This document shows, one piece after another, positions 41,964-63,009 of a DNA stretch of 64,000 bases (positions are counted from its first letter, which is position 1; every line of letters starts with the position of its first letter). The stretch lies in NCBI RefSeq assembly GCF_002220095.1, contig NZ_CP022372.1, forward strand, positions 4,622,501 through 4,686,500. Direction: 5' to 3'. A program made the position numbers and the translations under genes. Source of the DNA: Bosea sp. AS-1. GTDB taxonomy: Bacteria > Pseudomonadota > Alphaproteobacteria > Rhizobiales > Beijerinckiaceae. A model generated the notes under the pieces. The model saw only the letters and a list, made by a program, of their open reading frames with translations, was not told the origin of the DNA and searched no databases.

Positions 41964-42121
41964 CGGTAGTTTGACCCGACTTCGGATTCTACTCTGCCGT
42001 CGCTGACGGACCGCTTGCCGAGTGGGCGGCGAAGCAGCGCCGCTGCGTCGAAAGCATAACGCGGGACGCGGGATGGAGGGCGAACGGATTCCTGATCCGT
42101 TCGTGCGGCAGGGGGGCTTTG

Positions 42122-45100: not shown

Positions 45101-46324
45101 GTCGACCCATCGGTCACGACGCCGGGGGACCCTCCGGCAGGGCCTGTCTTCATCGGGGTGAGCGGGCCGAGGAACGCCTATGCCATCGGCAAGGCGATCG
45201 ACGGAGCCGTGGAAAATGGCGGTGACCCATCCGTACTGTTCGGAATCTACAACCTGCCGGCCGCCGCGATCCCGGCGGCGGTGAACAGCTTGTCGGGCGA
45301 GATCCATACGGCAGCACCGGCGATGGCGAGCCTTGCCTCCGACCAGTTCCTGCGCGCGATGCTTGACCCGACAGCGGCCGGGCGACTTGGGGCCGTCCCC
45401 ACCGGGCCAGGCCTGGCGGCCTTCTCCGGCCGCCAGCGCAAGGGCACGGATGAGCCCTTCGCTCCCTCGCGGCTCGACGTACCGTTCTATTCGGTCTGGG
45501 GCTCGGCTTACGGTTCCTACGGGCGCACCGACGGTAATGCCACCATCGGCTCGGTGAAGCGGACGATCGATGACGCGCACCTGGCCACTGGTATCGATCT
45601 TCGGCTGCTGCCGGGAACGGTGGCCGGCATCGCGGTTTCGGGCGGGCGGGCGCGTGCCTCGCTGCCGGGCGTGCTCGGCAAGATCGACGCGGATGTGTTC
45701 CAGGCGGGTCTGTACGGCGTGGCGCAGCTCGGGCCGGTGAAGCTCGGCGGGGCCTTGAGCTATGCGCGGCTGGATAACGACGTCAGCCGCGGGATCCCTG
45801 CCCTGGGCTCCAACCTCTCCTCCTCCTACGTGACGACGGCCTGGAGTGGACGGCTGCAGGCGAGCGCAGCGCTGCCCGGCTGGAATGGTTTCTCGCTTTC
45901 GCCGCTGGCTGCGGTCCAGGCGATCCGGGCGCGCAGTCCGGCAGTGATCGAAACGAACTGGGCCGGTGCCAATGCCGGCGCACTGGCCTTCGGCAAGCGC
46001 AGCGACATCACCGCCCGCAGCGAGCTCGGCTTGCAGCTCGACGCCGACACCTTGCTCGGCGGCGTGCCAGTGACCGGCTATGTCCGGGCAGCCTGGGCGC
46101 ACTATTTCCGGCGCGATGCGGACCTGACCGCGAGCCTGATCGGACTGCCCGGCGCAAGCTTCACGGCGACCGGCGCCCAGCTCGACCGCAACAGCGCGCT
46201 CGTCAGCGCCGGTATCACAGCCAGGTTGAGCGAGCGCGTCACACTCGGCCTCAACCTCGACGGCGAGCTCTCCGCCAACGGCAACCGCATCGGTGGCGCC
46301 GCTCAGATCAGCGTCAGTTTCTGA
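42122..46324 (+). CDS. Glycine-rich autotransporter adhesin-like protein
   Basis: This is a 1400-residue type Va secreted protein. An extended N-terminus (residues 1-79) ends in a signal core and a likely cleavage after Ala79 (PLWSQAASA). Residues about 82-460 form an exceptionally Gly-rich passenger with runs such as GGGGGGGRGSYDPG. A beta-helix with PATR-type repeats follows (GSLTKSGTGWLTLGGTNTYS near residue 700 and ALTKVGTGSFTLNETNSYPG around 825). The C-terminal beta-barrel (about 1121-1400, starting FYSVWGSAYGSYGRTDGNAT) ends in the required aromatic residue (ISVSF). Function in adhesion or surface structure is inferred. The ATG at 42122 is preferred over a TTG three bases earlier. Confidence 0.88.
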   Translation: MTVRGHGSLTHPFLTRAAAAASLPGSAASSLAAARGEIDTQASSAPRRQILRLTTSRTCLGLALSLGAGLPLWSQAASAQQITQGGGNGTGYSFGSGGLAGGGGGSGDRTIGIFGGDGGSAAQTPGGSATAGTRGHDDAGGLGGAGGAPGAPNDLSAGGGGGGGRGSYDPGFPRNGGAGGAGGGGNLLTTTSPLSLGSAYAGGTGAAGSFGGSQAGSGGGGGGGGGLILTGAGVTMNTNGFAVSGGGGGSAGGAGAGAGGGGAGLVLLNGGAITVAAGAGGVSVISGGRGSDSYEGGHGGAGLFLYNGGSLSHQAGSISGGAGGAWAWAGSGGAGVLSNLGIIDNRAAITGGKGGDSNAGGTGYGRGGAGLEAWGGSIANMAGGSIAGGAGGNQSDANPVYVAGGGGAGIVFRDGQTASLDNAGTISGGNGGTAASSSHGAGGVGIVGAASGGISIINSGMIAGGLSGDGVTRANAVALSGSNNRFEIRAGSRTDGNVVVQGGGTNNVLALGGSSNGSVNIGNLVSSHTGFSAYEKTGSSTWTLSGGGSQRWLIREGTLSGNSSSMAGDLTFDTGAGTRGVVFTQGTGGTYSGTISGDGGFALTGASGGGLTLTSAQSFTGTTTIQNGTLKMGAPNALASSAGIALTAGTWDLNGYNQTVNSLVGDAGTRVALGSATLTINNSALAGYVGDISGSGSLTKSGTGWLTLGGTNTYSGPTNVTEGTLAIRQNGSLRNSSAINISNGARFNVYEPNALSPTAPVNLTGAGSDFFLAFDQQIGSLSGGVDTQVSFNAGAVLTTGGNNTDAIFSGYLGVNGRGALTKVGTGSFTLNETNSYPGPTIVDGGSLIVNGSIVSSSGVTVAAGALLGGSGVVPTTVINGGTLSPGNSPGTLEVRGNLTFNPGSTYLAEIHGAVSDRVEVGGTAALAGTLRLVPLGGAYSFNSPYMLLSANDGVTGTFSPVNTTGSFGDGVATTVSYTANEVLLTLAPKPLTPVDPSVTTPGDPPAGPVFIGVSGPRNAYAIGKAIDGAVENGGDPSVLFGIYNLPAAAIPAAVNSLSGEIHTAAPAMASLASDQFLRAMLDPTAAGRLGAVPTGPGLAAFSGRQRKGTDEPFAPSRLDVPFYSVWGSAYGSYGRTDGNATIGSVKRTIDDAHLATGIDLRLLPGTVAGIAVSGGRARASLPGVLGKIDADVFQAGLYGVAQLGPVKLGGALSYARLDNDVSRGIPALGSNLSSSYVTTAWSGRLQASAALPGWNGFSLSPLAAVQAIRARSPAVIETNWAGANAGALAFGKRSDITARSELGLQLDADTLLGGVPVTGYVRAAWAHYFRRDADLTASLIGLPGASFTATGAQLDRNSALVSAGITARLSERVTLGLNLDGELSANGNRIGGAAQISVSF

Positions 46325-46392: not shown

Positions 46393-47133
46393 TCAAAGAG
46401 ACAGATCCAGGACTTTTCCCTCGAACAGGCGGTCGTAGGACCCCTGGATATGTCGGCGCATGGCGTCGCGCGCTTCGACCTCCTTGCGGTCGCGAATCGC
46501 GGCGAAAATCGCATCGTGCTCGTCGAGCACACCGACCAGTCCGCCGGCCGGCCCCAACAATGACAGGCCGTGCAGTTTCATGCCGACATTGATGTGGTCC
46601 TTCAGCGCCTGCATCGAGGACAGGAAGAAGTAGTTGTTCGCCGCTTCAGCGATGGCGATGTGGAAGGCATAGTCCGCATCCTCTCGGTGACCATGGGCAC
46701 GGGTCGTGTCGCGCATCAGTTCGAGCGCTCGGCCGATCGCAGCGAGCGCGACGTCGTTGTGCCGCTTGGCAGCGTAGAAGGCGTTCGCCGGCTCGACCTC
46801 CAGACGGAATTCGTAACAGCGCTGCACGTCGGCGATGGTGCCCACGGGGGCGAAAGCCAGCGCCTTGCCCTGCTCTGCTTCGCTGCCGCGCACGAAAGAA
46901 CCGGCCCCCTGTCGCGAAAACACCAACCCGTCATCACGCAGCCGCCGCAGCGCCTCGCGGATCACGGGGCGTGAAACGCCGTAGAGCGCAGCGAGATCAT
47001 GCTCGCCGGGCAGGCGCGTGTTCGCCGCATATTCACCCGAGGCGATCCGGGCGCGTAGCTGGTGGTGCACGCGCTGCACGAGCGGCGAAGGAGGGGCGCC
47101 GGCGGAAGGCTGCGATCCGGAAAGCTGATCCAT
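46393..47133 (-). CDS. FCD-type GntR regulator of the adjacent catabolic cluster
   Basis: This 246-residue transcription factor has an N-terminal GntR winged helix (residues about 20-85: LRARIASGEYAANTRLPGEH, then LYGVSRPVIREALRRLRDDG) and an all-helical FCD effector domain (about 95-240). The latter carries Asp/His metal ligands such as DADYAFHIAIAEAANN and a late DEHDAIFAAIRDR. It is divergent from the aldolase gene and faces the end of the autotransporter gene. FCD regulators commonly respond to an intermediate of the pathway they control. Its own promoter overlaps an operator-like motif. Confidence 0.9.
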   Translation of the reverse strand: MDQLSGSQPSAGAPPSPLVQRVHHQLRARIASGEYAANTRLPGEHDLAALYGVSRPVIREALRRLRDDGLVFSRQGAGSFVRGSEAEQGKALAFAPVGTIADVQRCYEFRLEVEPANAFYAAKRHNDVALAAIGRALELMRDTTRAHGHREDADYAFHIAIAEAANNYFFLSSMQALKDHINVGMKLHGLSLLGPAGGLVGVLDEHDAIFAAIRDRKEVEARDAMRRHIQGSYDRLFEGKVLDLSL

Positions 47134-47140
47134 GACCTCA

Positions 47141-47261
47141 TGCTTACAAGCAATTACAACTTCGTCAAGTCCGCCATTTTCAGCCTAAGATTCCGGTGTC
47201 ACCGCCGATTTTCGCATGAAAATTACAACATGTTGACATGTAGTCAGCATTGCGCTTCCAT
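47141..47261. promoter_or_regulatory. Divergent promoter and operator region of catabolic module A
   Basis: The motif AATTACAAC occurs at 47152-47160 and 47221-47229. The second is part of a perfect palindrome CAACATGTTG (47226-47235) that overlaps a perfect -35 TTGACA (47233-47238) on the plus strand, with a weak -10 (TTCCAT, 47256-47261). On the minus strand TTGACG (47163-47168) and TAAGCA (47141-47146), 16 bases apart, form the regulator promoter, with the first motif in its spacer. This fits autoregulation plus repression by the FCD protein. The pairing is inferred from layout. Confidence 0.6.
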
Positions 47262-47378: not shown

Positions 47379-48146
47379 ATGGCCGACGTCAGGACGAACC
47401 GTTTCAAGCGCGATCTGGGCAAGCGACAACAGCTCGGCATCTTCTCGACCTTCGCGAGCCCCGCGCTCACCGAAATGTTCGCCCAGCTCGGCTTCGACTG
47501 GCTGCTGCTCGACACCGAGCACAGCCCGAACGAGCCGTCGGAGGTCGTCGCTCAGCTGCAGGTCATGGCAGCGCTGCCGGCCGAGCCGATCGTGCGCCCG
47601 GCCTGGAATGACATGGTCATGGTCAAGCGCTGGCTCGATTTCGGAGCGCAGACCCTGCTCTTCCCCTATGTCCAGAATGCCGAGGAGGCGACGCGCGCCG
47701 TCAGCTACACGCGCTATCCGCCCCATGGGGCGCGCGGCGTCTCCGGTTCGTCGCGGGCGGCGGCCTATGGGCTGATCCCGGATTATTTCGCCAAGGTCCA
47801 GAAGGAGATCTGCGTCATCGTGCAGATCGAGACGACGGAGGCGCTGTCGCGGATCGAGGAGATCGCGCAGGTCGACGGCGTCGACGCCGTCTTCATCGGC
47901 CCTGCCGATCTCGCCGCCTCCATGGGCCATCTCGGCAATACGCAGGCTCCCGAAGTCCAAGCTGCAATCGACGACGGCTTCAGGCGCCTGAAGGCGATCG
48001 GCAAGTCGGCCGGCTATCTCACGAACAACGAAGGCGAAGCGGTACGCCGCGTCGCCCAAGGCATCGATTTCGTCGGCGTCGCCAACGACACGACAATCGT
48101 CGCCCGTGGCGCCCGCTCGCTCCTCGCCACGGTGAAGGGCGGCTGA
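47379..48146 (+). CDS. HpcH/HpaI-family class II aldolase
   Basis: This 255-residue metal-dependent aldolase is of the GarL/RhmA/HpaI type, which cleaves 2-keto-3-deoxy acids to pyruvate and an aldehyde. Active-site marks are Asp45 and His48 in LLLDTEHSPNEP, Arg73 in VRPAWND, the metal-binding Glu in VIVQIETTEAL and Asp in FIGPADLAASMG. TRYPPHGARGVSGSSRA is the family glycine-rich loop. The start at ATG 47379 is preferred; ATG 47376 is three bases earlier and equally close to AGGTGG. It is the first gene of the cluster, one base before the kinase gene. Confidence 0.87.
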   Translation: MADVRTNRFKRDLGKRQQLGIFSTFASPALTEMFAQLGFDWLLLDTEHSPNEPSEVVAQLQVMAALPAEPIVRPAWNDMVMVKRWLDFGAQTLLFPYVQNAEEATRAVSYTRYPPHGARGVSGSSRAAAYGLIPDYFAKVQKEICVIVQIETTEALSRIEEIAQVDGVDAVFIGPADLAASMGHLGNTQAPEVQAAIDDGFRRLKAIGKSAGYLTNNEGEAVRRVAQGIDFVGVANDTTIVARGARSLLATVKGG

Positions 48147-48147
48147 G

Positions 48148-49275
48148 ATGACGATGTGCCGGCAACCCCTGCGGCTGCTCGCCGACGACCTGACGGGCGC
48201 GCTCGACGCGGCAGCCGCCTTCGCGTCGCCGTCCGAGCCGGTCGCGGTCTGCTGGCGCGGCGAGGTGCCCGGAGCAGGCGCGATCGCGCTCGACAGCCGC
48301 TCGCGCGAAGCCTCGCCCGAGGCGGCGAGCGCCGCCGTCGCCGCTGTGGCGCCCGCACTTTTCGCCGCCGGAACGGGCCTCGCCTTCAAGAAGATCGACA
48401 GCCTGCTGCGCGGGCAGGAGGCGGCGGAGCTCGCCACCATCCTCGACCTGCTAAGGCCGTATCGCTGCATCATCGCGCCGGCCTTCCCGGCGCAACGGCG
48501 TGTCACGCGCGGCGGGCGCCAGCATGTTCTCGAACCCGCGGGGGTTCGTCTCCTGCCCGCCGATCTCGCCGCCGACCTTGCGGGGGCCGGACATGACGTC
48601 GCCAAGGCGGCGCCCGGTGATGCCGTGCCCAAGGGCGTGAGCCTCTGGGATGCCGAGACCGATGCCGATCTCGATATGATCGTCGCAGCGACGAGCGGGC
48701 CTGGCGAGGTTCTCTGGATCGGCAGCGCGGGCCTGGCTGCGGCGCTGGCGCGAGCAATGGGCTTCCAAAGTGCGGAAGCGGTGGTTGCCCTGCCCAAACC
48801 GATCATCGGTTTCGTCGGTTCGGAGCACGAGATGATGCATGCACAGCTCGCGGCACTGGGCACACGGCATTTGCGGCTTTCCGCGCGAACAGGCGGCGAG
48901 GCTGCCGAGATCGACCGCCGGTTGGCCGACGATGGCATCCTCTTCGCCAGTGTCGAGCTTCCAGCCGGCCTCTCCCGGGGAAAGGCTGCCCAGGCGATCG
49001 AAGCCCGGTTCGGCGCGCTGTTGGCGGAGCTGGACCGACCGGCCACTCTCTTCGCGGCCGGCGGCGAGACCTTGCGGGGACTGTGCGAGGCGCTGGGGGC
49101 CGAGCGGCTGGACGCTATCGGCGAGGTCGCGCCAGGCGTGCCGCGCTCGATTCTGCGCGGTGGGCGCTGGGACGGTGTGACGATCGTCTCGAAATCCGGG
49201 GCCTTCGGCGGCTCCAGCCTTCTCATCGACATCTTCGCGGACAACGCCGCGACACTCGCCGGAGCGGCAGCATGA
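48148..49275 (+). CDS. Four-carbon acid sugar kinase (DUF1537 family)
   Basis: This 375-residue protein has the DUF1537 N-domain (ADDLTGALDAAAAF at residues 12-25, the substrate and Asp motif) and C-domain (LFAAGGETLRGLCEALG and SKSGAFGGSSLLIDI near the end). Characterised relatives phosphorylate threonate, erythronate or 3-oxo-tetronate on C4. The start is one base after the aldolase stop and the end overlaps pdxA by four bases, so the three are translationally coupled. No signal peptide. The substrate stereochemistry cannot be read from the sequence. Confidence 0.88.
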   Translation: MTMCRQPLRLLADDLTGALDAAAAFASPSEPVAVCWRGEVPGAGAIALDSRSREASPEAASAAVAAVAPALFAAGTGLAFKKIDSLLRGQEAAELATILDLLRPYRCIIAPAFPAQRRVTRGGRQHVLEPAGVRLLPADLAADLAGAGHDVAKAAPGDAVPKGVSLWDAETDADLDMIVAATSGPGEVLWIGSAGLAAALARAMGFQSAEAVVALPKPIIGFVGSEHEMMHAQLAALGTRHLRLSARTGGEAAEIDRRLADDGILFASVELPAGLSRGKAAQAIEARFGALLAELDRPATLFAAGGETLRGLCEALGAERLDAIGEVAPGVPRSILRGGRWDGVTIVSKSGAFGGSSLLIDIFADNAATLAGAAA

Positions 49276-50327
49276 AACCCCATCTCGCCATCACCATGGG
49301 CGATCCCGCCGGTATCGGTCCGGAGATCATCATCAAGGCCTGCCTTAAGCTGAAGGACCGGCTCACGAAGGGCGATCTGCGCCTGCTGGTGATCGGCAGC
49401 AACCCCGCCCTGGCGGCGGCACGCCGCATGCTCAGCGCCGAGATCGCTATTCCCGAGGTGGCCGAACCCGATGACTGGCCGAACCTCGCCTGTCTCCAGG
49501 CCGGGCCAGAGGGCGAGCCGATCAGGCCGGGCGAGCTCAGCGCCGATGGCGGCCGCTTCGCCTATCTCGCGGTCGAGACAGCGGTGCGTCTTGCTCAGGC
49601 CGACCGCATCCAGGGCATCGTCACCGCGCCGCTGAACAAGGAAGCGCTGAACAAGGCCGGCTACAAATTCGCTGGCCATACCGACATGCTGGCGAGCCTC
49701 ACCGCCTCCAAGGGGTCGGTGATGATGCTCGCCCACGGCAATATGCGGGTCAGCCACGTCACCACCCATGTCGCTCTCAGGGACGTGCCGGACAAGCTGA
49801 CGCCGGAGCGCCTGCGCTATGTGATCGAGCGCACGGACGAGGCGTTGCGGGCGCTCAAACTCGGCCGCCGGAGAATCGCCGTCGCCGCCCTCAATCCCCA
49901 CGCCGGCGAAGGCGGCCTGTTCGGCAGGGAAGACGATGAGGTTTCGGCGCCGACCATCGCCAAGGCGGTGGCGGATGGGTTCGACGTGGTCGGCCCCGTG
50001 CCCGGCGACACCGTCTTCGTCAAGCTGCGGGCCAGGCAATACGACGCCGTGGTCGCGATGTACCACGACCAAGGGCATATCCCGGTCAAGCTGCTCGGCT
50101 TCAACGTCAATCCGCTGACCGGCACCTGGGATGCGCTATCCGGCGTCAACATCACCCTCGGCCTGCCGATCGTTCGCGTCTCGGTGGATCACGGCACGGC
50201 TTTCGACATCGCCGGCAAGGGCATCGCCAACGAACTCAGCCTGATCGAAGCCATCGAATACGCCGAGAAACTGGCCGCGGCGCGCGGCATCGCCGCGGCG
50301 TCGAACGCTGTCGACAGCGCGGCGTAA
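49272..50327 (+). CDS. PdxA-family dehydrogenase (4-phospho-threonate/erythronate dehydrogenase candidate)
   Basis: This 351-residue NAD- and metal-dependent enzyme is of the PdxA family. It has ITMGDPAGIGPEIIIKA at the N-terminus, His136 in FAGHTDMLASLT, RVSHVTTHVALRDVP, and the metal His in MYHDQGHIPVKLLGF around residue 265. NPHAGEGGLFGREDDE is the family signature. True PdxA makes vitamin B6, but this copy is coupled to a DUF1537 kinase, the pairing known for PdxA2, which oxidises 4-phospho-D-threonate with loss of CO2. The catabolic role is thus inferred from context. ATG at 49272 lies in the ATGA overlap. Confidence 0.9.
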   Translation: MKPHLAITMGDPAGIGPEIIIKACLKLKDRLTKGDLRLLVIGSNPALAAARRMLSAEIAIPEVAEPDDWPNLACLQAGPEGEPIRPGELSADGGRFAYLAVETAVRLAQADRIQGIVTAPLNKEALNKAGYKFAGHTDMLASLTASKGSVMMLAHGNMRVSHVTTHVALRDVPDKLTPERLRYVIERTDEALRALKLGRRRIAVAALNPHAGEGGLFGREDDEVSAPTIAKAVADGFDVVGPVPGDTVFVKLRARQYDAVVAMYHDQGHIPVKLLGFNVNPLTGTWDALSGVNITLGLPIVRVSVDHGTAFDIAGKGIANELSLIEAIEYAEKLAAARGIAAASNAVDSAA

Positions 50328-50340
50328 GGGAGGCACCCCG

Positions 50341-51501
50341 ATGAACATCCACAGCCCGAAGCCGCTCACGGCCACGAGCCTGGCGACGCCGATCACGATC
50401 CAGCGCCCGCGGATCATTGAGTTCGGCGCCGGCACAGCCGCACTCGCCGGCCGCTGGGCCGCCGAGCAAGGGTTCGACCGCATCCTCGTCGTCGCCGACG
50501 CTTTCAATGCACACCGTGTCGCGACGCTGGAACTGAAGGGTACGGTCACGGTGTTCGGCACCGTCCGCCCGGAGCCGGACGTGCCAAATCTCGAGGACGC
50601 GCTCGCACTGGCGAGCGAGGTAGAGCCGGATCTCGTCATCGGCTTCGGCGGCGGCAGTGCCATGGATCTCGCCAAGCTGGTCGCGGTCCTGCCGGGCTCC
50701 GGCCAGACGCTGCATGAGGTTGTCGGCCCCGAGAAGGTGGCGCGCAAGGCCGCTGCGCTGATGCAGGTGCCGACGACGTCCGGCACGGGCTCGGAAGCTG
50801 GCACGCGCGCTCTCGTCACCGACCCGGCGACGCAGAACAAGCTCGCTGTGCAGAGTCTGCACATGCTCGCCGACATCGCGATCATCGACCCTGCGCTGAC
50901 GCTGACCGTACCGCCGGCTGTGACGGCAGCGACCGGCGTCGACGCGATGGCGCATTGCGTCGAGGCCTTCACCAGCAAGAAGGCCCACCCGCTGATCGAC
51001 ATGTATGCGCTGGAGGGCGTGGCACTCGTCGGCCGTTTCCTGGCGCGGGCCATCTCGGACGGTTCCGATATCGAGGCGCGGGCGGGCCTCTCGCTCGCCT
51101 CGCTCTATGGCGGCTTCTGTCTCGGGCCGGTGAACACAGCGGCGGGCCATGCCGTGGCCTATCCGCTCGGCACACGCCACCACATCGCCCATGGCGCGGC
51201 GAATGCGTTGATCTTCCCGCATACGCTCGCCTTCAACGCCCCCGCGGCGCCGGAGAAGACGGCGGCGATCCTCGCCGCGCTCGGCCTGAAGGGCGGCTCG
51301 CGCGAGGAGGATGTCCTTGCCGCCGCGTATCGCTACTGCGCCGATCTCGGCTGCGAGATGACGCTCTCGGGCTTGAAGGTGCCACGCGACGATCTGCCGG
51401 CGATGGCGAGCGAGGCGCACGCCATTCGCCGCCTGCTCGACAACAACCCCCGCGACATCAGCCGCGCAGAGATCCTCGCCATCTATGAGGAGGCCTATTG
51501 A
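50341..51501 (+). CDS. Iron-containing alcohol dehydrogenase
   Basis: This 386-residue group III alcohol dehydrogenase has a nucleotide-binding region GFGGGSAMDLAKLVAVLPG around residue 100 and PTTSGTGSEAG around 145. Metal ligands are in TGVDAMAHCVEAF (Asp, His) and AGHAVAYPLGTRHHIAHG (His, His). Family substrates range from lactaldehyde and 1,3-propanediol to maleylacetate. In this cluster it could reduce or oxidise the aldehyde released by the aldolase, an inference. GGGAGG precedes the ATG. The stop overlaps the sialidase-like start by one base (TGATG). Confidence 0.88.
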   Translation: MNIHSPKPLTATSLATPITIQRPRIIEFGAGTAALAGRWAAEQGFDRILVVADAFNAHRVATLELKGTVTVFGTVRPEPDVPNLEDALALASEVEPDLVIGFGGGSAMDLAKLVAVLPGSGQTLHEVVGPEKVARKAAALMQVPTTSGTGSEAGTRALVTDPATQNKLAVQSLHMLADIAIIDPALTLTVPPAVTAATGVDAMAHCVEAFTSKKAHPLIDMYALEGVALVGRFLARAISDGSDIEARAGLSLASLYGGFCLGPVNTAAGHAVAYPLGTRHHIAHGAANALIFPHTLAFNAPAAPEKTAAILAALGLKGGSREEDVLAAAYRYCADLGCEMTLSGLKVPRDDLPAMASEAHAIRRLLDNNPRDISRAEILAIYEEAY

Positions 51502-52712
51502 TGGGTGCTCATTCGACCGTCATCGAGCCGGCAGGCCTCTCCGAGCGCAACGGAGCCTTGCATCCGCGCGAGGGTGATGCCGCCCGCACCGAGGCTTATC
51601 TGCCGAGCCCGTGCGTACAAAACCACGCCGCCAATCTCGCCGTGCTCGGCAATGGCGATCTCACCTGCGTCTGGTTCGGCGGCACGCAGGAAGGCATTCC
51701 GGACATCTCGGTCTACTTCTCGCGGCTGGCGAAAGGCGCGGAGCGCTGGAGCGCTCCGGAGAAGCTCTCCGATGATCCGGGCCGCTCCGAGCAGAACCCG
51801 GTCCTGTTCACCACGCCGAAGGGCGAGCTCTGGCTGATCTGGACCGCGCAGATCTCGGGCAATCAGGATACCTCGCTCATCCGCAAGCGCGTCTCGCGCG
51901 ATCACGGCGTTACCTGGGGGCCGATCGAGACGCTGTTCGAGGCACCTGAGGGCCATGGGCTGTTCGTGCGCCAGCCGCCCGTCGTCCTCGACGACGGAGC
52001 CTGGGCGATCCCGGTCTTCCACTGCGTCAGCGTGCCCGGCCGGAAATGGGTCGGCGACCGCGACGTCAGCGCCGTGCGGATCTCGACCGACGAGGGTAAG
52101 ACATGGAACGAGCATGTCGTGCCGGGCTCGCTCGGCTGCGTGCACATGAACGTGCTGAAGACGGCGGGAGGGCTCGTCGCGCTCTACCGCAGCCGCTGGG
52201 CCGACCATGTCTATATCAGCCGCTCGACCAATGGCCGCGACTGGTCCGCGCCGGAGCCAACCGAGCTGCCGAACAACAACTCCTCGGTGCAGGCGACAGT
52301 GCTGGCCGACGGGCGCATCGCGCTGGTCTTCAACAAGGCGAGCCGGCTCGATGCCACCGATCGCCGCACCGGCCTCTATGACGACATCGAGGACGAAAGC
52401 GAACCGGTCGTCGCGGCTGCCGAGACTCCCGTCCCCTCGGCCTCCGAGCACACCGCCTTCTGGGGAGCGCCGCGCGCGCCGATGACGCTCGCGATCTCCG
52501 CCGATGGCGGCCGAAGCTGGCCGGTGCAGCGCAATCTGGAAGAGGGCGACGGCTACTGCATGACCAACAACTCGAAGGACGGGCTGAACCGCGAGTTCTC
52601 CTATCCCTCGATCACGCAGACGCCGGACGGCGAGATCCAGATCGCCTTCACCTATTGGCGCCGCGCCATCAAGCACGTCCGCGTCGCGCCCGGCTGGGCG
52701 GAGCGCGGCTGA
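51501..52712 (+). CDS. Sialidase-like (BNR repeat) beta-propeller protein, cytosolic
   Basis: This 403-residue six-bladed-propeller-type protein has four Asp-box motifs: SRDHGVTW (132-139), STDEGKTW (195-202), SRSTNGRDW (240-248) and SADGGRSW (333-340). Pfam-type BNR_2 sialidase relatives include exo-sialidases but also hydrolases and lyases of unknown substrate. There is no signal peptide, no clear arginine triad for sialate binding by eye, and no sialic-acid catabolic gene nearby, so a true sialidase role is doubtful. Translational coupling with the alcohol dehydrogenase gene implies it acts on the imported substrate or an early intermediate. Confidence 0.8.
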   Translation: MGAHSTVIEPAGLSERNGALHPREGDAARTEAYLPSPCVQNHAANLAVLGNGDLTCVWFGGTQEGIPDISVYFSRLAKGAERWSAPEKLSDDPGRSEQNPVLFTTPKGELWLIWTAQISGNQDTSLIRKRVSRDHGVTWGPIETLFEAPEGHGLFVRQPPVVLDDGAWAIPVFHCVSVPGRKWVGDRDVSAVRISTDEGKTWNEHVVPGSLGCVHMNVLKTAGGLVALYRSRWADHVYISRSTNGRDWSAPEPTELPNNNSSVQATVLADGRIALVFNKASRLDATDRRTGLYDDIEDESEPVVAAAETPVPSASEHTAFWGAPRAPMTLAISADGGRSWPVQRNLEEGDGYCMTNNSKDGLNREFSYPSITQTPDGEIQIAFTYWRRAIKHVRVAPGWAERG

Positions 52713-52747
52713 ACGACATCAGAAGAACCTCGAACAGGGAGACGCCC

Positions 52748-53560
52748 ATGGCCGCCCTCGCTCAAGTCCACCCCATCTCGGAGGCAAAGGCCCTGATGCC
52801 GCGCGACCTCATCCGCATCGACGGCCTCGAGAAGACCTATGCCGATGGCTCGGTCCACGCCTTGTCGAACATCGACCTCAACATCAAGGACGGCGAGTTC
52901 GTCTGCGTCGTCGGTCCTTCGGGCTGCGGCAAGTCGACCCTGCTGCGCATTCTCGCCGGGCTCGACGATTACGACAGCGGCGAAGCCGCGCTTGATGGGA
53001 GATCGATCACCGGCCCTTCGCGGGATGTCGGTGTCGTCTTCCAGGCGGCGAACCTGCTGCCCTGGCTGACTGTACGCGAGAACGTCGCACTGCCCTTGCG
53101 GGTCGGCGGCAAGCAGGTGGGGCAGGCGGAGGATGTCGACCGGCTGCTCGATGTCACCGGGCTCAAGGATTTCGGGCACCGCTATCCTTACGAGCTGTCG
53201 GGCGGCATGCAGCAGCGCGCCGGCATCTGCCGGGCGCTGGTGCGCTCACCGCGCGTCCTGCTGATGGACGAACCATTCGGCGCGCTCGACGCGCTGACCC
53301 GCGAGCGCATGAACCTCGAACTCCAGCGCATCTGGCAGGCGAGCCGCAAGACCGTGATGCTGATCACCCATTCGATCTCGGAAGCGATCTTCCTCGCCGA
53401 CCGCGTGGTGGTGATGTCCGCGCGCCCCGGCCGCGTCATCCGCGAACTGGACGTGCCGATCCCACGCCCCCGCTCCAACGACAGCATCATCAGCCATCCG
53501 GCCTATCCGGCGCTGGCCAAGGAAATCCGGGGTCTGCTCAACGCCCAGGGAGACGAATGA
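52748..53560 (+). CDS. ABC transporter ATPase (taurine/nitrate/sulfonate type)
   Basis: This 270-residue ATPase is of the SsuB/TauB/NrtD family and energises the neighbouring permease. It has Walker A GPSGCGKSTL, Q loop VFQAANLLPWLTV, signature LSGGMQQRAGICRAL, Walker B VLLMDEPFGALD and H loop LITHSISEAIFLAD, all intact (contrast with the lone homologue at 1491-2261). The ATG at 52748 has AGGGAG about seven bases upstream. Its stop overlaps the permease start. The substrate is not predictable from the ATPase. Confidence 0.92.
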   Translation: MAALAQVHPISEAKALMPRDLIRIDGLEKTYADGSVHALSNIDLNIKDGEFVCVVGPSGCGKSTLLRILAGLDDYDSGEAALDGRSITGPSRDVGVVFQAANLLPWLTVRENVALPLRVGGKQVGQAEDVDRLLDVTGLKDFGHRYPYELSGGMQQRAGICRALVRSPRVLLMDEPFGALDALTRERMNLELQRIWQASRKTVMLITHSISEAIFLADRVVVMSARPGRVIRELDVPIPRPRSNDSIISHPAYPALAKEIRGLLNAQGDE

Positions 53561-54432
53561 TGAGCCAGGCGCAGACCACCATCGTCGCCGATCCCGTTGC
53601 GATCGAGAAGGCGGCCCCCAAGCCCGGGACGGCTGCTGGCAAGCGCAAGCAGAAGAAGGGCATCAACGGCACGGCGATCACGCTCGTCGGCCTCGCCCTC
53701 CTGTTCGCCGGCTGGGCGGCGGCGGTGAAGTATCTCGACATTCCTTCCTACATCCTGCCTTCACCGGTGGCGGTGTGGAACGCACTCTGGTCCGGCATCG
53801 CCGTCAGCCCATCGAGTCCACTCGGCTACTACCTGCCACTTTGGGGAACGCTGAAGAACGCGGCCATCGGGCTCGCCATCGGCTCGGGGCTGGGGCTCAC
53901 GCTCGGCTCGCTCATGGCCGAGAGCCGGCTGATCGAGAAGCTGGTGATGCCCTATGCCTTCGCATTGCAATCCCTGCCGAAGGTCGCGATCGCGCCGCTG
54001 GTCGTGATCTGGTTCGGTTTCGGCGACGGCTCGAAGATCGCGATCTCGGCGCTGCTCGCCTTCTTCCCGATGCTGATCAACAGCTTCACCGGCCTGCGCG
54101 CCGTCGAGCCTGAGCGCATCGACCTGATGCGCTCGCTCTCAGCCTCGCGCTTCGAGACCTACCGGATCGTCAAGCTGCCCAATGCCGCGCCCTACATCTT
54201 CGCCGGGCTCGACATGGCGGTTGTCTATGCGCTGCTCGGCACCATCGTCGCCGAATTCCTCGGCGCCCAGCAGGGCATGGGCGTCGTCATCACACAGGCG
54301 CAGGCCGTAACGGACGTGGCCGGCGTCTTCGCCGCGCTCGTCATCCTGGGCGCGATGGGAATCCTGCTCCACGGCATCGTCCGCGGGCTGGAGGCACGAA
54401 TCGTCCATTGGGGAGACCGCGGCCGCAAGTGA
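53557..54432 (+). CDS. ABC transporter permease (taurine/nitrate/sulfonate type)
   Basis: This 291-residue inner-membrane permease of the SsuC/TauC family has about six helices (first at residues 38-58). The EAA-type coupling loop is in LMRSLSASRFETYRIVKLPNAAPYIFAGL. FALQSLPKVAIAPLVVIWFGFG is typical. ATG 53557 overlaps the ATPase stop by four bases; a second ATG three bases on (53560) has better spacing from GGGAG and may be the real start. It is followed by the binding protein gene 42 bases later. Confidence 0.92.
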   Translation: MMSQAQTTIVADPVAIEKAAPKPGTAAGKRKQKKGINGTAITLVGLALLFAGWAAAVKYLDIPSYILPSPVAVWNALWSGIAVSPSSPLGYYLPLWGTLKNAAIGLAIGSGLGLTLGSLMAESRLIEKLVMPYAFALQSLPKVAIAPLVVIWFGFGDGSKIAISALLAFFPMLINSFTGLRAVEPERIDLMRSLSASRFETYRIVKLPNAAPYIFAGLDMAVVYALLGTIVAEFLGAQQGMGVVITQAQAVTDVAGVFAALVILGAMGILLHGIVRGLEARIVHWGDRGRK

Positions 54433-54474
54433 ATCGACCGCAACCATAAACAAGCAAGGGAAAGGGAGAACGTC

Positions 54475-55545
54475 ATGATCAACCGCAGACAATGGCTCCA
54501 GGCCAGCAGTGTCTTCGCGACCGCGCTGGCGCTCGGCCCGCGTTCCGCCTTCGCGCAGCCTGCCAAGACGGTGAAGGTCGGCGTCGGTCTCAAGTCAATC
54601 AACGCCAGCGTCATCAACCTGCTGGTGGGCGAGGCGCTCGGCTACAATGCCGAAGAGGGCTTCAAGGTGCAGGGGCTGGCACTCGGCGGCAACGCCAATG
54701 TCCAGGTCGCGACGGACAAGGGCGATGTCGATGTCGGCATCGGCGTGCCGTCCTATGCGCTGCCGATCCTCGCCAGGGGCGAATGGGGCCAGTCGCAATG
54801 GTTCTACCAGTACACCTATCCCTATAAATGGGATGTGGCGGTGAAGCCGGGCTCGGCCGTCAAGAGCTATGCCGACCTCAAGGGCAAGAATATCGGCGTC
54901 TCCGATTTCGGCGGCACCGAATATCCCGTCACCCGCAACGTGCTGAAGTCGCTGGGCATCGACCCCGACAAGGATGCGAAGTGGACGGCGGTCGGCGCCG
55001 GCGTGCCGGCGGGCGTGGCGCTGCAGCGCGGCGCGATCGATGCGCTGGCCTATTACGACACGGGCTTCGGCATCATCGACGGCGCCGGCATCCCGCTCGA
55101 GCTCGTGAAGCGGCCCGACAACCTGCCGATGATCGGTGGTCAGTTCCTGATGGGGCTGCGGCCACGCATCGAGAAGGAGCGCGCCACCTTCGTCGGCTTC
55201 GGCCGCTCGACGGCCAAAGCCTCATATTTCATCCTCGAGAACCCAACCGCCGGCGCAAAGGCATTCCTGAAGCTCTATCCGGAAACCGCCCCGCGCGGCT
55301 CCAGCGAAGAACAGGCGGTGAAATCGGTGCTGGAAGCGATCAGCCGGCGCATCAAGCTCTACGAACCGCCTTATCAGGGCGCCAAAATGGGCTCGATCCG
55401 GGTCGACGAATTCGTGACGGAAGCCAAGATGAACGACTGGGACATCAAGGACTTCTCGAAGATCTACACCAACGACCTGATCGGTGAGATCAATAATTTC
55501 GATGTCGAGAAGATCAGGGCGCAAGCGCGCGCCTACACTGGATGA
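54475..55545 (+). CDS. ABC transporter periplasmic substrate-binding protein (NMT1/TauA-like)
   Basis: This 356-residue receptor has a twin-arginine-type signal (MINRRQWLQASSVFATALAL, cleavage near SAFAQ). The two-lobe type 2 fold shows VINLLVGEALGYNAEEGFKV and GDVDVGIGVPSYALPIL in lobe one, YADLKGKNIGVSDFGGTEYP and LQRGAIDALAYYDTGFG in the hinge region. Receptors of this class bind nitrate, sulfonates, thiamine precursors or aromatic and other small acids, so ligand identity needs experiment. Strong local operon order with the kinase/PdxA genes suggests a sugar acid or its conjugate. The stop overlaps the SDR start by four bases. Confidence 0.88.
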   Translation: MINRRQWLQASSVFATALALGPRSAFAQPAKTVKVGVGLKSINASVINLLVGEALGYNAEEGFKVQGLALGGNANVQVATDKGDVDVGIGVPSYALPILARGEWGQSQWFYQYTYPYKWDVAVKPGSAVKSYADLKGKNIGVSDFGGTEYPVTRNVLKSLGIDPDKDAKWTAVGAGVPAGVALQRGAIDALAYYDTGFGIIDGAGIPLELVKRPDNLPMIGGQFLMGLRPRIEKERATFVGFGRSTAKASYFILENPTAGAKAFLKLYPETAPRGSSEEQAVKSVLEAISRRIKLYEPPYQGAKMGSIRVDEFVTEAKMNDWDIKDFSKIYTNDLIGEINNFDVEKIRAQARAYTG

Positions 55546-56249
55546 GTGATCCGTCTTCCGAAACCGGCGAGCGCCCAAAACATGCGCTCGTCACCGGCGT
55601 CAGTTCCGGAATCGGCGAGGCGACCGCGAAGCGCCTCCTCGCCGAAGGCTGGAGCGTCATCGGCTTCAGCCGTGGCGCGCCGGCCTTCGCGCATGAGCGC
55701 CTGAAGCATGTCTCCGTCGACATCGCCGACCCGACGGCGCTGGCGCAAGCACTGGCCGGCATCGGCATGCTCGACGCGATCGTCCACGCCGCCGGTATCT
55801 TGCGCGTCGGCACCCTTGGCCAGCTCGACCCGGCAAATGGTCATGCGATGTGGCGACTGCACGTGGATGCGGCCGAGCAGATCGTCGAGGCGCTCGCCGG
55901 GGCGCTACCGGAGGGCGCACGTATCGTCTTCATCGGCAGCCGGACGGCAGCGGGCACGGCCGGCCGAGCCCAGTATGCCGCAACCAAGGCGGCACTGGTC
56001 GGCATGGCCCGCTCGTTCGCGATCGAGCTGGCGCCCCGGCAGATCACCGTGAACGTGGTCGCGCCGGGAGCGACCGACACGCCGATGCTGAAAGACCCGA
56101 AACGAGCTGCGGTCGCGCCGAAGATGCCACCGATGGGCCGGCTAGTGAAACCGGAAGAGGTGGCCGCGACGGTGTGCTTCCTGCTCTCTGAGGGGGCTGC
56201 GAGCATCACCGGGCAGCAGATCCTTGTCTGCGGTGGCGCCTCGCTCTGA
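55542..56249 (+). CDS. Short-chain dehydrogenase/reductase
   Basis: This 235-residue SDR has TGVSSGIGEATAKRLLAEG at residues 16-34 (NAD(P)-binding GxxxGxG). The catalytic Ser is in FIGSRTAAGT, and Tyr/Lys are in QYAATKAALVGMARSF (YxxxK). VAPGATDTPML follows. The substrate is unknown; family members act on sugars, polyols and hydroxy acids. It is the last gene of the cluster, coupled by ATGA to the transporter receptor gene. A 316-base gap follows. Confidence 0.88.
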   Translation: MSDPSSETGERPKHALVTGVSSGIGEATAKRLLAEGWSVIGFSRGAPAFAHERLKHVSVDIADPTALAQALAGIGMLDAIVHAAGILRVGTLGQLDPANGHAMWRLHVDAAEQIVEALAGALPEGARIVFIGSRTAAGTAGRAQYAATKAALVGMARSFAIELAPRQITVNVVAPGATDTPMLKDPKRAAVAPKMPPMGRLVKPEEVAATVCFLLSEGAASITGQQILVCGGASL

Positions 56250-56565: not shown

Positions 56566-57552
56566 TTACCTACTCACCTCCTGCCGAATGCAGGCCTTGA
56601 AGTGGCCGGGCGAAACCTCTTCGAGCGGAGGCACCACCCTCGCGCATTCCTCGATCGCGTGTGGGCAGCGGGTACGGAACACGCAACCCGAAGGCGGATT
56701 GGCCGGGCTGGGGATATCGCCCTTCAGGATCTGGCGAGAGCGGGCCTTGGCCGGATCGGGGGACGGAATCGCCGAGAGCAGCGCCCGCGTGTAGGGGTGA
56801 TGGGGCTCGCGATACAGTTGCTCGCTCGATGCGATCTCCATGATGCGACCGAGATAGAGCACGATGACCGTGTCGCAGATGTATTCGACGACAGCCAGAT
56901 CGTGCGAGATGAACAGCATCGACAGACCGAGGCGGAGCTGCAGATCGCGGAGCAGGTTGACGATCTGGGCCTGGATCGAGACGTCGAGCGCCGAGACGGG
57001 CTCGTCGGCCACGATCAGCTGCGGCTCCAGCGTCAAGGCGCGTGCGATGCCGATGCGCTGGCGCTGCCCCCCGGAAAACTCGTGCGCGTAGCGATCGAAA
57101 GCGTCGGCTGGCAGGTCGACTGCCGCAAGCGCCACCCTGGCCCGCTGGGCTCGCTCCGGGCGCGTCCCGATCCGTTGAATTTCGAGCCCCTCGGTCAGGA
57201 TCTGCCCGATGGTCATGCGCGGCGACAAGCTCGCGAACGGATCCTGAAAGATATACTGCATGTGCCGGCGCTGGGGACGCATCTCGGCGGCGGAAAGTTT
57301 GGTCAGGTCGACGCCGTTGAAGCGCACCTCGCCCGAAGTCGGCTCGATGAGGCGCAGCACCGAACGCCCGATCGTCGTCTTGCCGCTGCCCGACTCGCCG
57401 ACGAGGCCGACGACCTTGCCGCGCGGCACGTCGAAGGAGACGTCTTCGAGCGCGCGTACGACAGCCCCGCGAGCAAAGCCCGCCGGCTTGAAATGTTTGG
57501 TCAGGTTCCTGACCGAAAGCAGCGCGTCCGTCACGCTCAAACCTCCTGCCAT
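56566..57552 (-). CDS. Oligopeptide/dipeptide-type ABC ATPase (DppF/OppF type)
   Basis: This 328-residue ATPase has Walker [18 protein letters not shown] loop [15 protein letters not shown], signature [18 protein letters not shown], Walker [13 protein letters not shown] and H loop [15 protein letters not shown]. The C-terminal oligopeptide ABC domain has a Cys-containing [16 protein letters not shown] (Fe-S or structural Cys cluster typical of DppF/OppF). The ATG at 57552 overlaps the partner ATPase gene by 16 bases; a GTG at 57534 is an alternative. It is the last gene of module B. Confidence 0.9.
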
Positions 57553-58547
57553 CTCAGGCAGCGGCTCTTCTTGCCGTTACCTGCATCAAACAAGGGCGGA
57601 ACATCGGCCCGGCACGCATCGATCGCGTAAGGACACCGCGGAGCGAAGGAACAGCCCTGCGGGAGCTGGATGAGGCTCGGCACGGAGCCCGCGATCGTCG
57701 GCAGGGGAATTCCCTGCCGTTTCAACGCGGTCGCCTCCCCCAGCCTCGGGATGGAGCGCATCAGGCCGATCGTATAGGGGTGTCGCGGATGCGCGAATAC
57801 GTCGGCGACGGCCCCGATCTCGACGATGCGGCCGGCATACATCACGGCCACCCGGTCGGCGATCTCCGCCACCACGCCGAGATTATGGGTGACGAACAGG
57901 ATGCCCATGCCACGTTCCGCCTGCAGCTTCTGCAGCAGGTCGAGGATCTGGGCCTGGATGGTCACGTCGAGCGCCGTGGTCGGCTCATCCGCGATCAGCA
58001 GAACCGGATCGCAGGCAAGCGCCATGGCAATGGTGGCGCGCTGGCGCATGCCGCCGGACAGTTCGTGCGGGTATTGCCGGGCGCGCCGCTCAGGGTCCGG
58101 GATGCCGACATCGGCCAGGAGCTGCACCGCCCCGGCAGCGGCCTCCTTGCGGCTGCTCCCGAGATGGATGCGCATGGGCTCGGCGATCTGCTCGCCGATG
58201 GTATAGACCGGGTTGAGGCTGGTCATGGGCTCCTGGAAGACCATGGCGATGTCATTGCCCCGGATCTGCCGCATGGCTTCGGCGTCAAATCCGGTGAGGT
58301 CCCGCGTCTCACCTGATTTGCCCCTGAACAGGATGTGGCCCTGATCGACCCGGCCCACCCCTCTCGGCAGCAGCCCCATGATCGAGAGGCTGGTGACGGA
58401 CTTGCCCGACCCGGACTCGCCGACCAGTGCCAGCGTCTCCCCCGGCGCGATCGTCAGGTCCAGGTCCTGCACGGCAGCGACCTGCCGGCCCCCGATGCGG
58501 AAGACCGTCTTGAGCCCCGCTATATCGAGGATCGGGGCGGCGTCCAT
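57537..58547 (-). CDS. Oligopeptide/dipeptide-type ABC ATPase (DppD/OppD type)
   Basis: This 336-residue ATPase starts at the ATG at 58547, four bases from the DapA-like stop. It has Walker [17 protein letters not shown] loop [15 protein letters not shown], signature [15 protein letters not shown], Walker [13 protein letters not shown] and H loop [15 protein letters not shown]. The C-terminal Cys cluster is [15 protein letters not shown]. It pairs with the downstream DppF-type ATPase to energise the DppB/DppC permeases. Tail-to-head overlap with dppF indicates one transcript. Confidence 0.91.
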
Positions 58548-58551
58548 CGCG

Positions 58552-59469
58552 TCAGCGTCCAAGCCCGGCGGCGCGGACCATCTGCGCGACCTTCGCCGAC
58601 TCTTCGGCATTGAGCGACCGCTGCGGCCGCGCCATCGTGTTGGTGGCGATAATGCCAAGTTCGCGCATGGCGGTCTTGAAGGCGCCGACACCGGCGGAAC
58701 CAGCGCTGGTCCGAGGCAGAGAAACCCAGACCATTTCGAACAGCTGGCACAGACGCTCCTGTTCCTTGCGCGCGGCGTCCCAGTCCCCGGCCCGGGCGTG
58801 CTTCCACAACCGCACGTAGCCATGTGGGTCCACATTGGCGAGGCCCGGCACGACGCCATGCGCGCCCATCTGGAGCGCGTTGTCGACCACGATCTCCGAA
58901 CCCGTCATGAGAAACACGTCGGGCTTGTCGGCGAGATCGAGCAGGCAGAAGCGGAAGGTGCCATCGTCACCGCTCGAATCCTTGAGCCCGGCGATGGTGC
59001 CCTCGCGAGCCAGCGTCACGGTCGTCTGGCGCTCCAGCTTGGTATGGACGCAGACGGGGATGTCATAGGCGATCACCGGAACGTCGAGCGCCTGGCGCAC
59101 GTAGCGGAAATGGTCGACCACCTCCGGCTGACTCGTCCGGGTATAGAAGGGAGCCGTCACCACCACGGCATCGACGCCGATCGCCTGCGCCGCCTTCGCA
59201 TGGCCGATGACCCGGTCGGTGGTCGGATCGATGACGCCCGCCAGGACCGGCAGGCGCCCGTTCACCACCTTCACGGTGTGCTCCAGGATCCGGCGCCGGG
59301 TGGCCTCATCGTGGAAGATCACCTCGCTGGTCGAGCCGAGCACGAAGAGGCCGTGCACGCCGCCCGCGATCAGGTGCTCCAGAACCCTGGTATAGGAGGG
59401 GTAGTCGACCTCGAAATTCTCGGTGAGAGGAGTGACGACCGGAGGGACGACGCCGTGGAAGCTGGTCAT
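58552..59469 (-). CDS. DapA-family aldolase/lyase embedded in the transporter operon
   Basis: This 305-residue class I aldolase of the dihydrodipicolinate synthase / N-acetylneuraminate lyase superfamily has the Schiff-base Lys163 in [12 protein letters not shown] and Tyr135 in [12 protein letters not shown]. The loop GSTSEV (residues 45-50) replaces the GTTGE motif of true DapA, favouring a sugar-acid or related substrate rather than lysine synthesis. dapA function is therefore not claimed. It lies between dppC and dppD, with 20 and four base gaps, so the cleaved substrate probably arrives through this transporter. Product and substrate are unknown. Confidence 0.85.
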
Positions 59470-59489
59470 GGTAAGCCTTTGCCGCTTGG

Positions 59490-60371: not shown

Positions 60372-60373
60372 GA

Positions 60374-61333: not shown

Positions 61334-61413
61334 GAGCAGGCCTTCGTGATCTGGAGCGAGAAGGCGGCCGGACTGCGCTGATCCGCCTTCTCGGAAGCGT
61401 CGGGCAGGTTCGC

Positions 61414-62997: not shown

Positions 62998-63009
62998 CGT
63001 TCCCTCCTG

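What the first reader, a model, noticed from the sequence alone, without database searches (positions are those of the whole stretch)
47379..56249. Acid-sugar catabolic cluster with an unexpected sialidase-like propeller and taurine/nitrate-type importer
Nine genes on one strand, with stop-start overlaps at several junctions, join an HpcH/HpaI aldolase, a DUF1537 kinase, a PdxA-like dehydrogenase, an iron-type alcohol dehydrogenase, a propeller, a three-part ABC importer and an SDR. Kinase plus PdxA2 is the known D-threonate/erythronate route (product DHAP), but that route needs no pyruvate-forming aldolase, no propeller and usually another transporter type. The cluster may break down a larger conjugate or a different acid, with both pyruvate and triose phosphate as products.
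Basis: partly seen in the sequence, partly recalled or inferred. Interest (0 to 1): 0.72.

Follow-up and report, generated by a model that had tools for sequence, protein, structure and literature searches.

The report
Predicted operon for a pectin sugar
A soil bacterium carries a nine-gene operon whose parts fit together as a so far undescribed route for eating an unusual sialic-acid-like sugar of plant cell walls, and relatives of the operon turn up in many plant-associated bacteria and in about a fifth of the complete E. coli genomes searched.

Summary
In detail: nine co-directional genes, a divergent GntR/FCD regulator and one conserved predicted operator (47222-47239, the only exact match in the genome). 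The grouping is not accidental. Kinase, PdxA, iron-ADH, a pyruvate aldolase and the propeller recur together in Azospirillum, Rhizobium, Caballeronia, Klebsiella, Bacillus and E. coli. Two unrelated aldolase families swap (HpcH or DHDPS-type), which suggests that a pyruvate-releasing cleavage is needed; the importer type varies. In E. coli (locus in 1043 of 5426 genomes) kinase and PdxA pass the curated D-threonate models and sit beside a sialic-acid-anomerase-type YhcH and a citrate-transporter-family permease. Best explanation: a C7 2-keto-3-deoxy diacid is split to pyruvate and a C4 semialdehyde, reduced to D-threonate, then phosphorylated and oxidised to DHAP. Of eight stereoisomers two lead to D-threonate, and one of the two is Dha of pectin RG-II. 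The propeller has a sialidase fold but a His in place of a sialidase Glu; I infer that it frees Dha from a small conjugate. Substrate and propeller chemistry are inferred; the window's own kinase, PdxA and HpcH miss the specific curated cut-offs. Literature listings showed no description of Dha breakdown.

The parts
46393..47133 (-). GntR/FCD regulator, divergent
   Evidence: Pfam GntR + FCD; a relative in the same place in Bosea, Azorhizobium and several Azospirillum loci
47222..47239 (+). predicted operator ATTACAACATGTTGACAT (core CAACATGTTG)
   Evidence: core 10-mer in 13 of 13 regions compared between regulator and first gene; only exact match in the 5.84 Mb genome, two more with 3 mismatches, 0 for the reversed-pattern control
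47379..48146 (+). HpcH/HpaI class II pyruvate aldolase (predicted: Dha to pyruvate + C4 semialdehyde)
   Evidence: PF03328; best model HpaI TIGR02311 300.1 bits (cut-off 368.8), next 2-keto-3-deoxyglucarate aldolase 269.9; best PDB hit HpaI 4b5s
48148..49275 (+). short DUF1537 four-carbon acid sugar kinase (predicted D-threonate 4-kinase)
   Evidence: PF07005/PF17042; NF047819 D-threonate kinase 113.5 bits, below cut-off 450
49272..50327 (+). PdxA-family dehydrogenase (predicted: D-threonate 4-phosphate to DHAP + CO2)
   Evidence: PF04166; passes general TIGR00557 (351 of 290.35); D-threonate-4-P model NF002891 286.5, below 583
50341..51501 (+). iron-containing alcohol dehydrogenase (predicted reductase of the C4 semialdehyde)
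   Evidence: PF00465/PF25137; orthologue in 28 of the 32 propeller genomes of the order sample
51498..52712 (+). BNR_2 six-bladed propeller with sialidase fold; no signal peptide by eye
52745..53560 (+). ABC importer ATPase (Tau/Ssu/Nrt type)
   Evidence: PF00005; below the curated cut-offs
53557..54432 (+). ABC importer permease
   Evidence: PF00528
54475..55545 (+). ABC importer receptor, NMT1/THI5-like; twin-arginine-like N terminus by eye
   Evidence: PF09084; weak PDB hit 3qsl
55542..56249 (+). SDR oxidoreductase, frequent partner of the propeller, role open
   Evidence: PF13561; an SDR of this group in 72 of 80 named loci; not found in the Rhizobium, Agrobacterium and S. meliloti loci L136-L138

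Best explanation
[quoted passage not shown] The importer brings it in. The sialidase-fold propeller acts at its anomeric C2, most likely splitting a ketosidic bond (inferred, weakest step). HpcH (a DHDPS-family lyase in most other loci) splits open-chain Dha to pyruvate and a C4 semialdehyde acid. The iron-ADH reduces the aldehyde to D-threonate. The DUF1537 kinase makes D-threonate 4-phosphate, and PdxA oxidises and decarboxylates it to DHAP. Shown by computation: gene content, linkage, aldolase swapping, sialidase fold, D-threonate models met in the E. coli locus, stereochemical consistency. Inferred: every reaction in this bacterium, the substrate, the propeller reaction. The SDR is unexplained.
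For: 1) Linkage: kinase+PdxA+Fe-ADH in the same stretch as the propeller in 39 of 80 named loci; 37 of these 39 also hold a DHDPS-family or HpcH aldolase. All 20 Bradyrhizobium genomes searched whole that lack them locally carry a 74-76% PdxA directly beside a 67-69% Fe-ADH elsewhere. 2) Aldolase identity changes (HpcH in 4 of 80 named loci, DHDPS-family in 42) while the partners stay; the DHDPS-type proteins of the two clusters looked at keep the G-x-K and Y-x-x-P segments in 41 of 41 (their active-site roles are recalled). 3) D-threonate: E. coli kinase 531 bits (cut-off 450) and PdxA 681.6 (583), Pantoea PdxA 668.2 (583). 4) A YhcH-family protein lies beside the propeller in Pantoea, Klebsiella and E. 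coli; in sialic acid breakdown YhcH opens the cyclic 2-keto acid for its aldolase (PMC8141875, passages). 5) Di/tricarboxylate-type permeases stand in for the importer: CitMHS family in Paenibacillus and E. coli; tripartite tricarboxylate receptors are annotated beside the Comamonadaceae and Roseomonas clusters. 6) Bookkeeping: of 8 heptulosarates only D-xylo and D-lyxo (= Dha) give D-threonate. 7) Kdo and Dha are in plants found only in RG-II and resemble sialic acid (PMC12168206, passages). 8) The 297 plasmid records with a relative are mostly from Rhizobium, Sinorhizobium, Pantoea and Agrobacterium.
Against: The window kinase, PdxA and HpcH score below the curated cut-offs for D-threonate kinase, D-threonate-4-P dehydrogenase and HpaI; so do the Bacillus, Paenibacillus and Caballeronia kinases and the Bacillus and Caballeronia PdxA. 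The Bacillus and Paenibacillus DHDPS-type proteins pass the lysine-pathway DapA model (233.7 and 235.1 of 206.15). Dha is reached by elimination and stereochemistry, not by a ligand. The propeller has His216 where aligned sialidases have Glu; if a diacid permease imports the free monosaccharide, no ketosidase is needed. Propeller-free clusters with the same core add a 2-hydroxyacid dehydrogenase (L151, L154, L155, L157) or FAD oxidase (L153), so the core may serve other acids. The own genome has no GH28 polygalacturonase. Of 27 genomes searched whole, G318, G319, G321 and G322 lack a close Fe-ADH; G320 and G323 have it but only a 45-48% PdxA. 4 of 32 propeller genomes of the order lack the Fe-ADH. 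L054 and L060 show no aldolase; Roseomonas L140 shows no kinase or PdxA and Bacilli L160 only a DHDPS.
Confidence: 0.5

Rival explanations
1. Same C7 diacid core, but the propeller is not a glycosidase: it opens or epimerises the ring (an anomerase, as the propeller NanM does for sialic acid) or opens a lactone of the free sugar acid.
For: His216 in place of a sialidase Glu; no signal peptide by eye; small-acid permease families as partners; among 108 loci a YhcH was found by tblastn only in L133 and L105, so most would lack an anomerase.
Against: E. coli, Pantoea and Klebsiella have YhcH beside the propeller, which would be redundant; one Arg (231) aligns with a sialidase Arg and Tyr369, weakly, with a sialidase Tyr.
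Confidence: 0.25
2. The core handles another 2-keto-3-deoxy acid (the D-xylo isomer, or a C6 acid such as 2-keto-3-deoxyglucarate giving tartronate semialdehyde), with kinase/PdxA serving a separate tetronate.
For: HpcH also resembles 2-keto-3-deoxyglucarate aldolase (269.9 and 259.2 bits); propeller-free clusters with hydroxyacid dehydrogenases exist.
Against: A C6 acid leaves a C3 aldehyde, so kinase/PdxA would have no link to the aldolase, yet 37 of 39 kinase/PdxA/Fe-ADH loci have one; I know of no natural source of the D-xylo isomer (recall).
Confidence: 0.15
3. The kinase/PdxA pair recycles 4-hydroxythreonine for vitamin B6, and its neighbours are unrelated.
For: Suggested for the DUF1537/PdxA2 pair of the E. 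coli BEN2908 locus (PMC12928451, passages, citing Thiaville 2016); the window PdxA passes the general PdxA model.
Against: Recurrent catabolic partners and a dedicated predicted operator; E. coli kinase and PdxA pass D-threonate models, though that PdxA passes the general model too.
Confidence: 0.05
4. A sialic acid or sulfonate operon.
For: Sialidase fold; Tau/Ssu-like importer.
Against: No ManNAc kinase or epimerase and no sulfonate enzyme among the nine genes; importer is replaced elsewhere; receptor scores 26.6 against the SsuA cut-off 163.5.
Confidence: 0.05

Closest known systems
DtnK/PdxA2 D-threonate pathway (recalled: Zhang et al. 2016; not read)
   Same: DUF1537 kinase plus PdxA-type dehydrogenase giving DHAP; the E. 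coli locus has both enzymes above the curated cut-offs, the Pantoea locus the PdxA
   Different: Here an aldolase and an iron-ADH would make the D-threonate inside the cell, with a sialidase-fold protein in front
Sialic acid catabolism (importer, YhcH anomerase, NanA aldolase)
   Same: Sialidase-fold protein, YhcH in enteric versions, DHDPS/NanA-family lyase releasing pyruvate from a 2-keto sugar acid
   Different: No amino-sugar enzymes; the aldehyde would be reduced and go to D-threonate
HpaI in homoprotocatechuate breakdown (recalled)
   Same: Splits a C7 2-keto-4-hydroxy diacid into pyruvate and a C4 semialdehyde
   Different: Substrate would carry two more hydroxyls; no aromatic pathway genes among the nine
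BT1020 (GH142/GH143), Dha hydrolase of RG-II in Bacteroides (recalled; PDB 5mqr)
   Same: Acts on Dha (recalled); 5mqr gives a weak one-stretch hit (E 0.009)
   Different: 1108-residue protein of a polymer degrader; the window protein has 404 residues and looks cytoplasmic
E. coli BEN2908 region GR6, nagE..glnS (PMC12928451, passages read)
   Same: COG4692, DapA-type, Fe-ADH, DtnK-like, PdxA2-like, NanQ-like and CitT-like genes together; the paper also notes a similar cluster in S. meliloti
   Different: In the passages seen no substrate is given for the set and B6 synthesis is cited for the pair

Membership tests
D-threonate (DtnK/PdxA2) pathway | DUF1537 kinase next to PdxA-family dehydrogenase | tested here: met
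D-threonate (DtnK/PdxA2) pathway | window proteins pass curated D-threonate kinase / 4-phosphate dehydrogenase cut-offs | tested here: not met
   113.5 vs 450 and 286.5 vs 583; met by the E. coli pair and the Pantoea PdxA, not by the Bacillus and Caballeronia proteins
D-threonate (DtnK/PdxA2) pathway | activity on D-threonate | not testable with these tools
   needs enzyme assay
GH33 sialidase | six-bladed sialidase fold | tested here: met
GH33 sialidase | catalytic Glu | tested here: not met
   His216, invariant in the 48 aligned members, stands opposite the Glu of NanB and NanC (that this Glu is the catalytic one is recalled)
GH33 sialidase | Tyr nucleophile and arginine triad | tested here: inconclusive
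   Tyr369 aligned to a sialidase Tyr only in an insignificant stretch; Arg231 aligned; the other two Arg not aligned by any search
HpaI (4-hydroxy-2-oxoheptanedioate aldolase) | passes TIGR02311 | tested here: not met
   300.1 vs 368.8, yet the best of the four aldolase models listed
HpaI (4-hydroxy-2-oxoheptanedioate aldolase) | active-site segments kept | tested here: met
   window against 4b5s; 5 of 5 relatives by pattern; residue roles recalled
GH143 Dha hydrolase | homology to BT1020 | tested here: inconclusive
   weak hit to 5mqr; not among the 50 rows listed
Taurine/nitrate importer | passes curated Ntr/Tau/Ssu models | tested here: not met
   ATPase 234.8 vs 291.8 (NtrCD) and 231.7 vs 357 (taurine); permease 98.8 vs 347 (SsuC); receptor 26.6 vs 163.5

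The most novel reading that the evidence does not exclude
A widespread, undescribed bacterial pathway eats Dha, an orphan sugar of pectin RG-II: a new cytoplasmic sialidase-fold enzyme frees it, a pyruvate lyase and an aldehyde reductase turn it into D-threonate, and this explains why bacteria keep D-threonate kinases. It operates in plant-associated bacteria and, as a gut cross-feeding trait, in about one fifth of E. coli.
Probability: 0.4. Interest if true: 0.85.

Novelty: new variant of a known kind. Interest (0 to 1): 0.68.

Why it matters
If true it gives a catabolic fate to a sugar of plant cell walls, a physiological source for D-threonate, and a function for a large protein family (4192 relatives at E <= 1e-10 among 7998 scored candidates) that records often name 'exo-alpha-sialidase' or 'sialidase family protein' and that would then be misnamed in rhizobia, Pantoea and E. 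coli. It also makes a common E. coli genomic region testable.

Tried and rejected
Importer as the clue to the substrate: rejected, importer types are exchangeable. Kdo as substrate: aldol cleavage would give arabinose, which leaves kinase/PdxA unexplained (reasoning, no call). Neighbouring - strand Opp/DHDPS operon (56566-63732) as part of the system: set aside, since no such set follows the cluster in the close relatives L053-L058; not tested further. An RG-II polysaccharide locus around the propeller in Bacilli: propeller in 4 of 398 genomes, one of them the centre G321; GH88 in L109 and GH78/GH1 domains in L113 nearby, suggestive only. YhcH as a general partner: only L133 and L105 by tblastn in 108 loci, later also L162 and L163. 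A GH143 homologue was not seen among the listed fold matches. A FAD oxidase as mark of propeller-free clusters: not exclusive, since L093 (Pfam) and, by clustering, L057 and L096 have one as well as the propeller. Automatic gene calling in high-GC loci picked some antisense frames, so counts use tblastn. Literature: searches showed, in titles and abstract starts, no paper on Dha catabolism or on COG4692 function; I opened passages of PMC8141875, PMC12168206, PMC12928451 and PMC6353982 and no whole paper; many subscription papers are not in the library; Zhang 2016, Thiaville 2016 and Ndeh 2017 are recalled or seen only as citations.
Full report
WHAT IS THERE. The window lies in a 5.84 Mb genome, probably a Bosea: the closest named relative of the propeller is from Bosea sp. 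UNC402CLCol (93%). Upstream and divergent is a GntR/FCD regulator (46393-47133). Between them lies ATTACAACATGTTGACAT at 47222-47239. The 10-mer AACATGTTGA, part of it, occurs in 13 of 13 regions compared. With up to three mismatches the 18-mer is found 25 times in 23 of the sequences searched (2.6 Mb), against 1 site in one mononucleotide shuffle. In the own genome it has one exact match, this one, and two matches with three mismatches. So the operon looks like a regulon of its own.

LINKAGE. 80 named loci (the best 80 of 166) were examined by tblastn: kinase in 42, PdxA 41, iron-ADH 41, DHDPS-family 42, HpcH 4, SDR 72, GntR 22, sodium:solute symporter 64, Tau-type ABC permease and receptor 11. 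Presence means anywhere in the stretch held, up to 10 kb on either side. Kinase+PdxA+Fe-ADH occur together in 39, and 37 of these 39 have an aldolase of one or the other family (exceptions L054, L060). 39 loci have no PdxA in the stretch, most of them Bradyrhizobium with propeller and SDR. Of these 39, 28 were given to a whole-genome search and 27 were held (L078 not). All 20 Bradyrhizobium have a PdxA of 74-76% directly beside an Fe-ADH of 67-69% elsewhere, and Telmatospirillum G317 one of 77% beside 65%. Five such regions were read, four Bradyrhizobium and G317; all 5 also hold kinase and a DHDPS-family gene. The other six: G318 and G319 lack both; G321 and G322 have only a 43-47% PdxA and no close Fe-ADH; G320 and G323 have an Fe-ADH of 70-75% but only a 45-48% PdxA, which may be the housekeeping one. 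In a sample of 297 genomes of the order (the own one included) propeller 32, Fe-ADH 36, both 28, one-sided Fisher p 6e-28, not corrected for phylogeny.

BEYOND CLOSE RELATIVES. Azospirillum TSH58: kinase-PdxA-FeADH-DHDPS-propeller-ABC-SDR. Comamonadaceae: kinase-PdxA-FeADH-DHDPS-propeller-SDR with a tripartite tricarboxylate receptor gene upstream. Caballeronia: kinase and PdxA fused in one 768-residue protein. Rhizobium, Agrobacterium and S. meliloti: DHDPS, propeller, PdxA, kinase, Fe-ADH (in S. meliloti only as two tblastn pieces) and an Opp-type importer, no SDR of the group. Roseomonas L140: SDR, Fe-ADH, propeller, DHDPS and a tricarboxylate receptor, no kinase or PdxA in the stretch. Pantoea ananatis: PdxA (named D-threonate 4-phosphate dehydrogenase) divergent to FeADH-DHDPS-symporter-propeller-YhcH-SDR, no kinase in the stretch. 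Klebsiella: the same plus kinase. Bacillus safensis: DHDPS-FeADH-symporter-propeller-regulator-kinase-PdxA. Of three more Bacilli regions, L159 and L161 have DHDPS, Fe-ADH, kinase and PdxA, L160 only DHDPS. E. coli: DeoR-PdxA-dtnK divergent to FeADH-DHDPS-TerC-propeller-YhcH-SLC13 between glnS and nagE; 1043 of 5426 complete E. coli genomes cover at least 80% of this locus. The window propeller is about 60% identical to the E. coli one. The region has been listed in print as GR6 of E. coli BEN2908 (PMC12928451, passages); in the passages I saw no substrate is given for the set.

WHAT THE PARTS SAY. (a) E. coli kinase and PdxA pass the curated D-threonate models (531 of 450; 681.6 of 583), as does Pantoea PdxA (668.2). 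The window proteins and those of Bacillus and Caballeronia, and the Paenibacillus kinase, do not, but have the same partners. The substrate of PdxA in B6 synthesis has, from my own knowledge, the D-threo arrangement. (b) Two unrelated pyruvate aldolase families replace one another: HpcH (closest model HpaI, whose known substrate is a C7 keto diacid giving a C4 semialdehyde, recalled) and DHDPS-type lyases, which keep the G-x-K and Y-x-x-P segments in 41 of 41 members of the two clusters. Caution: the Bacillus and Paenibacillus lyases pass the DapA model; the E. coli and Pantoea ones do not. (c) The Fe-ADH scores with aldehyde reductases and 4-hydroxybutyrate dehydrogenase among others, no model passed. 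(d) YhcH opens cyclic sialic acid for its aldolase (PMC8141875, passages); its presence in the enteric versions suggests that the aldolase substrate is a cyclic 2-keto sugar acid. (e) Permeases of the citrate-transporter family serve in E. coli and Paenibacillus. A 2-keto-3-deoxy acid that gives pyruvate plus a C4 semialdehyde acid, reducible to a tetronate, must be a C7 diacid. Of the eight 3-deoxy-heptulosarates two give D-threonate, D-xylo and D-lyxo. The D-lyxo form is Dha of RG-II; Kdo and Dha occur in plants only there and are related to sialic acid (PMC12168206, passages).

LIMITS. No reaction was measured. The own genome has no GH28, so the bacterium would scavenge. The SDR (72 of 80 loci) and the TerC protein in E. 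coli are unexplained. Searches for Dha breakdown, for COG4692 and for acid sugar kinase plus sialidase showed no prior description, judged from listings in an open-licence library; of the two papers with 'heptulosaric acid', one passage was read (PMC6353982, pectin composition only) and the other (PMC6854810) was not opened.

Noticed in passing
L163:5952-14931 (E. coli SCU-125, between glnS and nagE): Related operon with dtnK, D-threonate-4-P dehydrogenase, YhcH and SLC13 permease; at least 80% of the locus in 1043 of 5426 E. coli genomes, at >=99% identity in 1034 records.
   Followed up: partly
window 56566-63732, - strand: Separate operon: dipeptide-type ABC importer, DHDPS-family lyase and a second GntR/FCD regulator (63010-63732); perhaps another keto-acid route.
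   Followed up: partly
L135:6049-8355 (Caballeronia SBC2): Kinase and PdxA fused in one 768-residue protein, which supports consecutive steps.
   Followed up: partly
L056:12941-15995 and L057:12995-16033: Two receptor genes in the ABC importer operon of Bradyrhizobium CSA207 and Bosea OK403, which may widen ligand range.
   Followed up: no
L151, L153, L154, L155, L157: Propeller-free DHDPS/Fe-ADH/kinase/PdxA clusters with a 2-hydroxyacid dehydrogenase (with TctA in L154, L155, L157) or with a FAD-linked oxidase (L153).
   Followed up: partly
G000:C3:4047839-4048519 (L001): A second DUF1537 kinase in the same genome, scoring higher on PF07005 (257 bits against 76).
   Followed up: no
L163:11207-11965: TerC/YkoY-family membrane protein inside the E. 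coli operon, role unclear.
   Followed up: no
window 42119-46324: 1401-residue open frame, by eye a glycine-rich autotransporter-like protein, next to the regulator.
   Followed up: no
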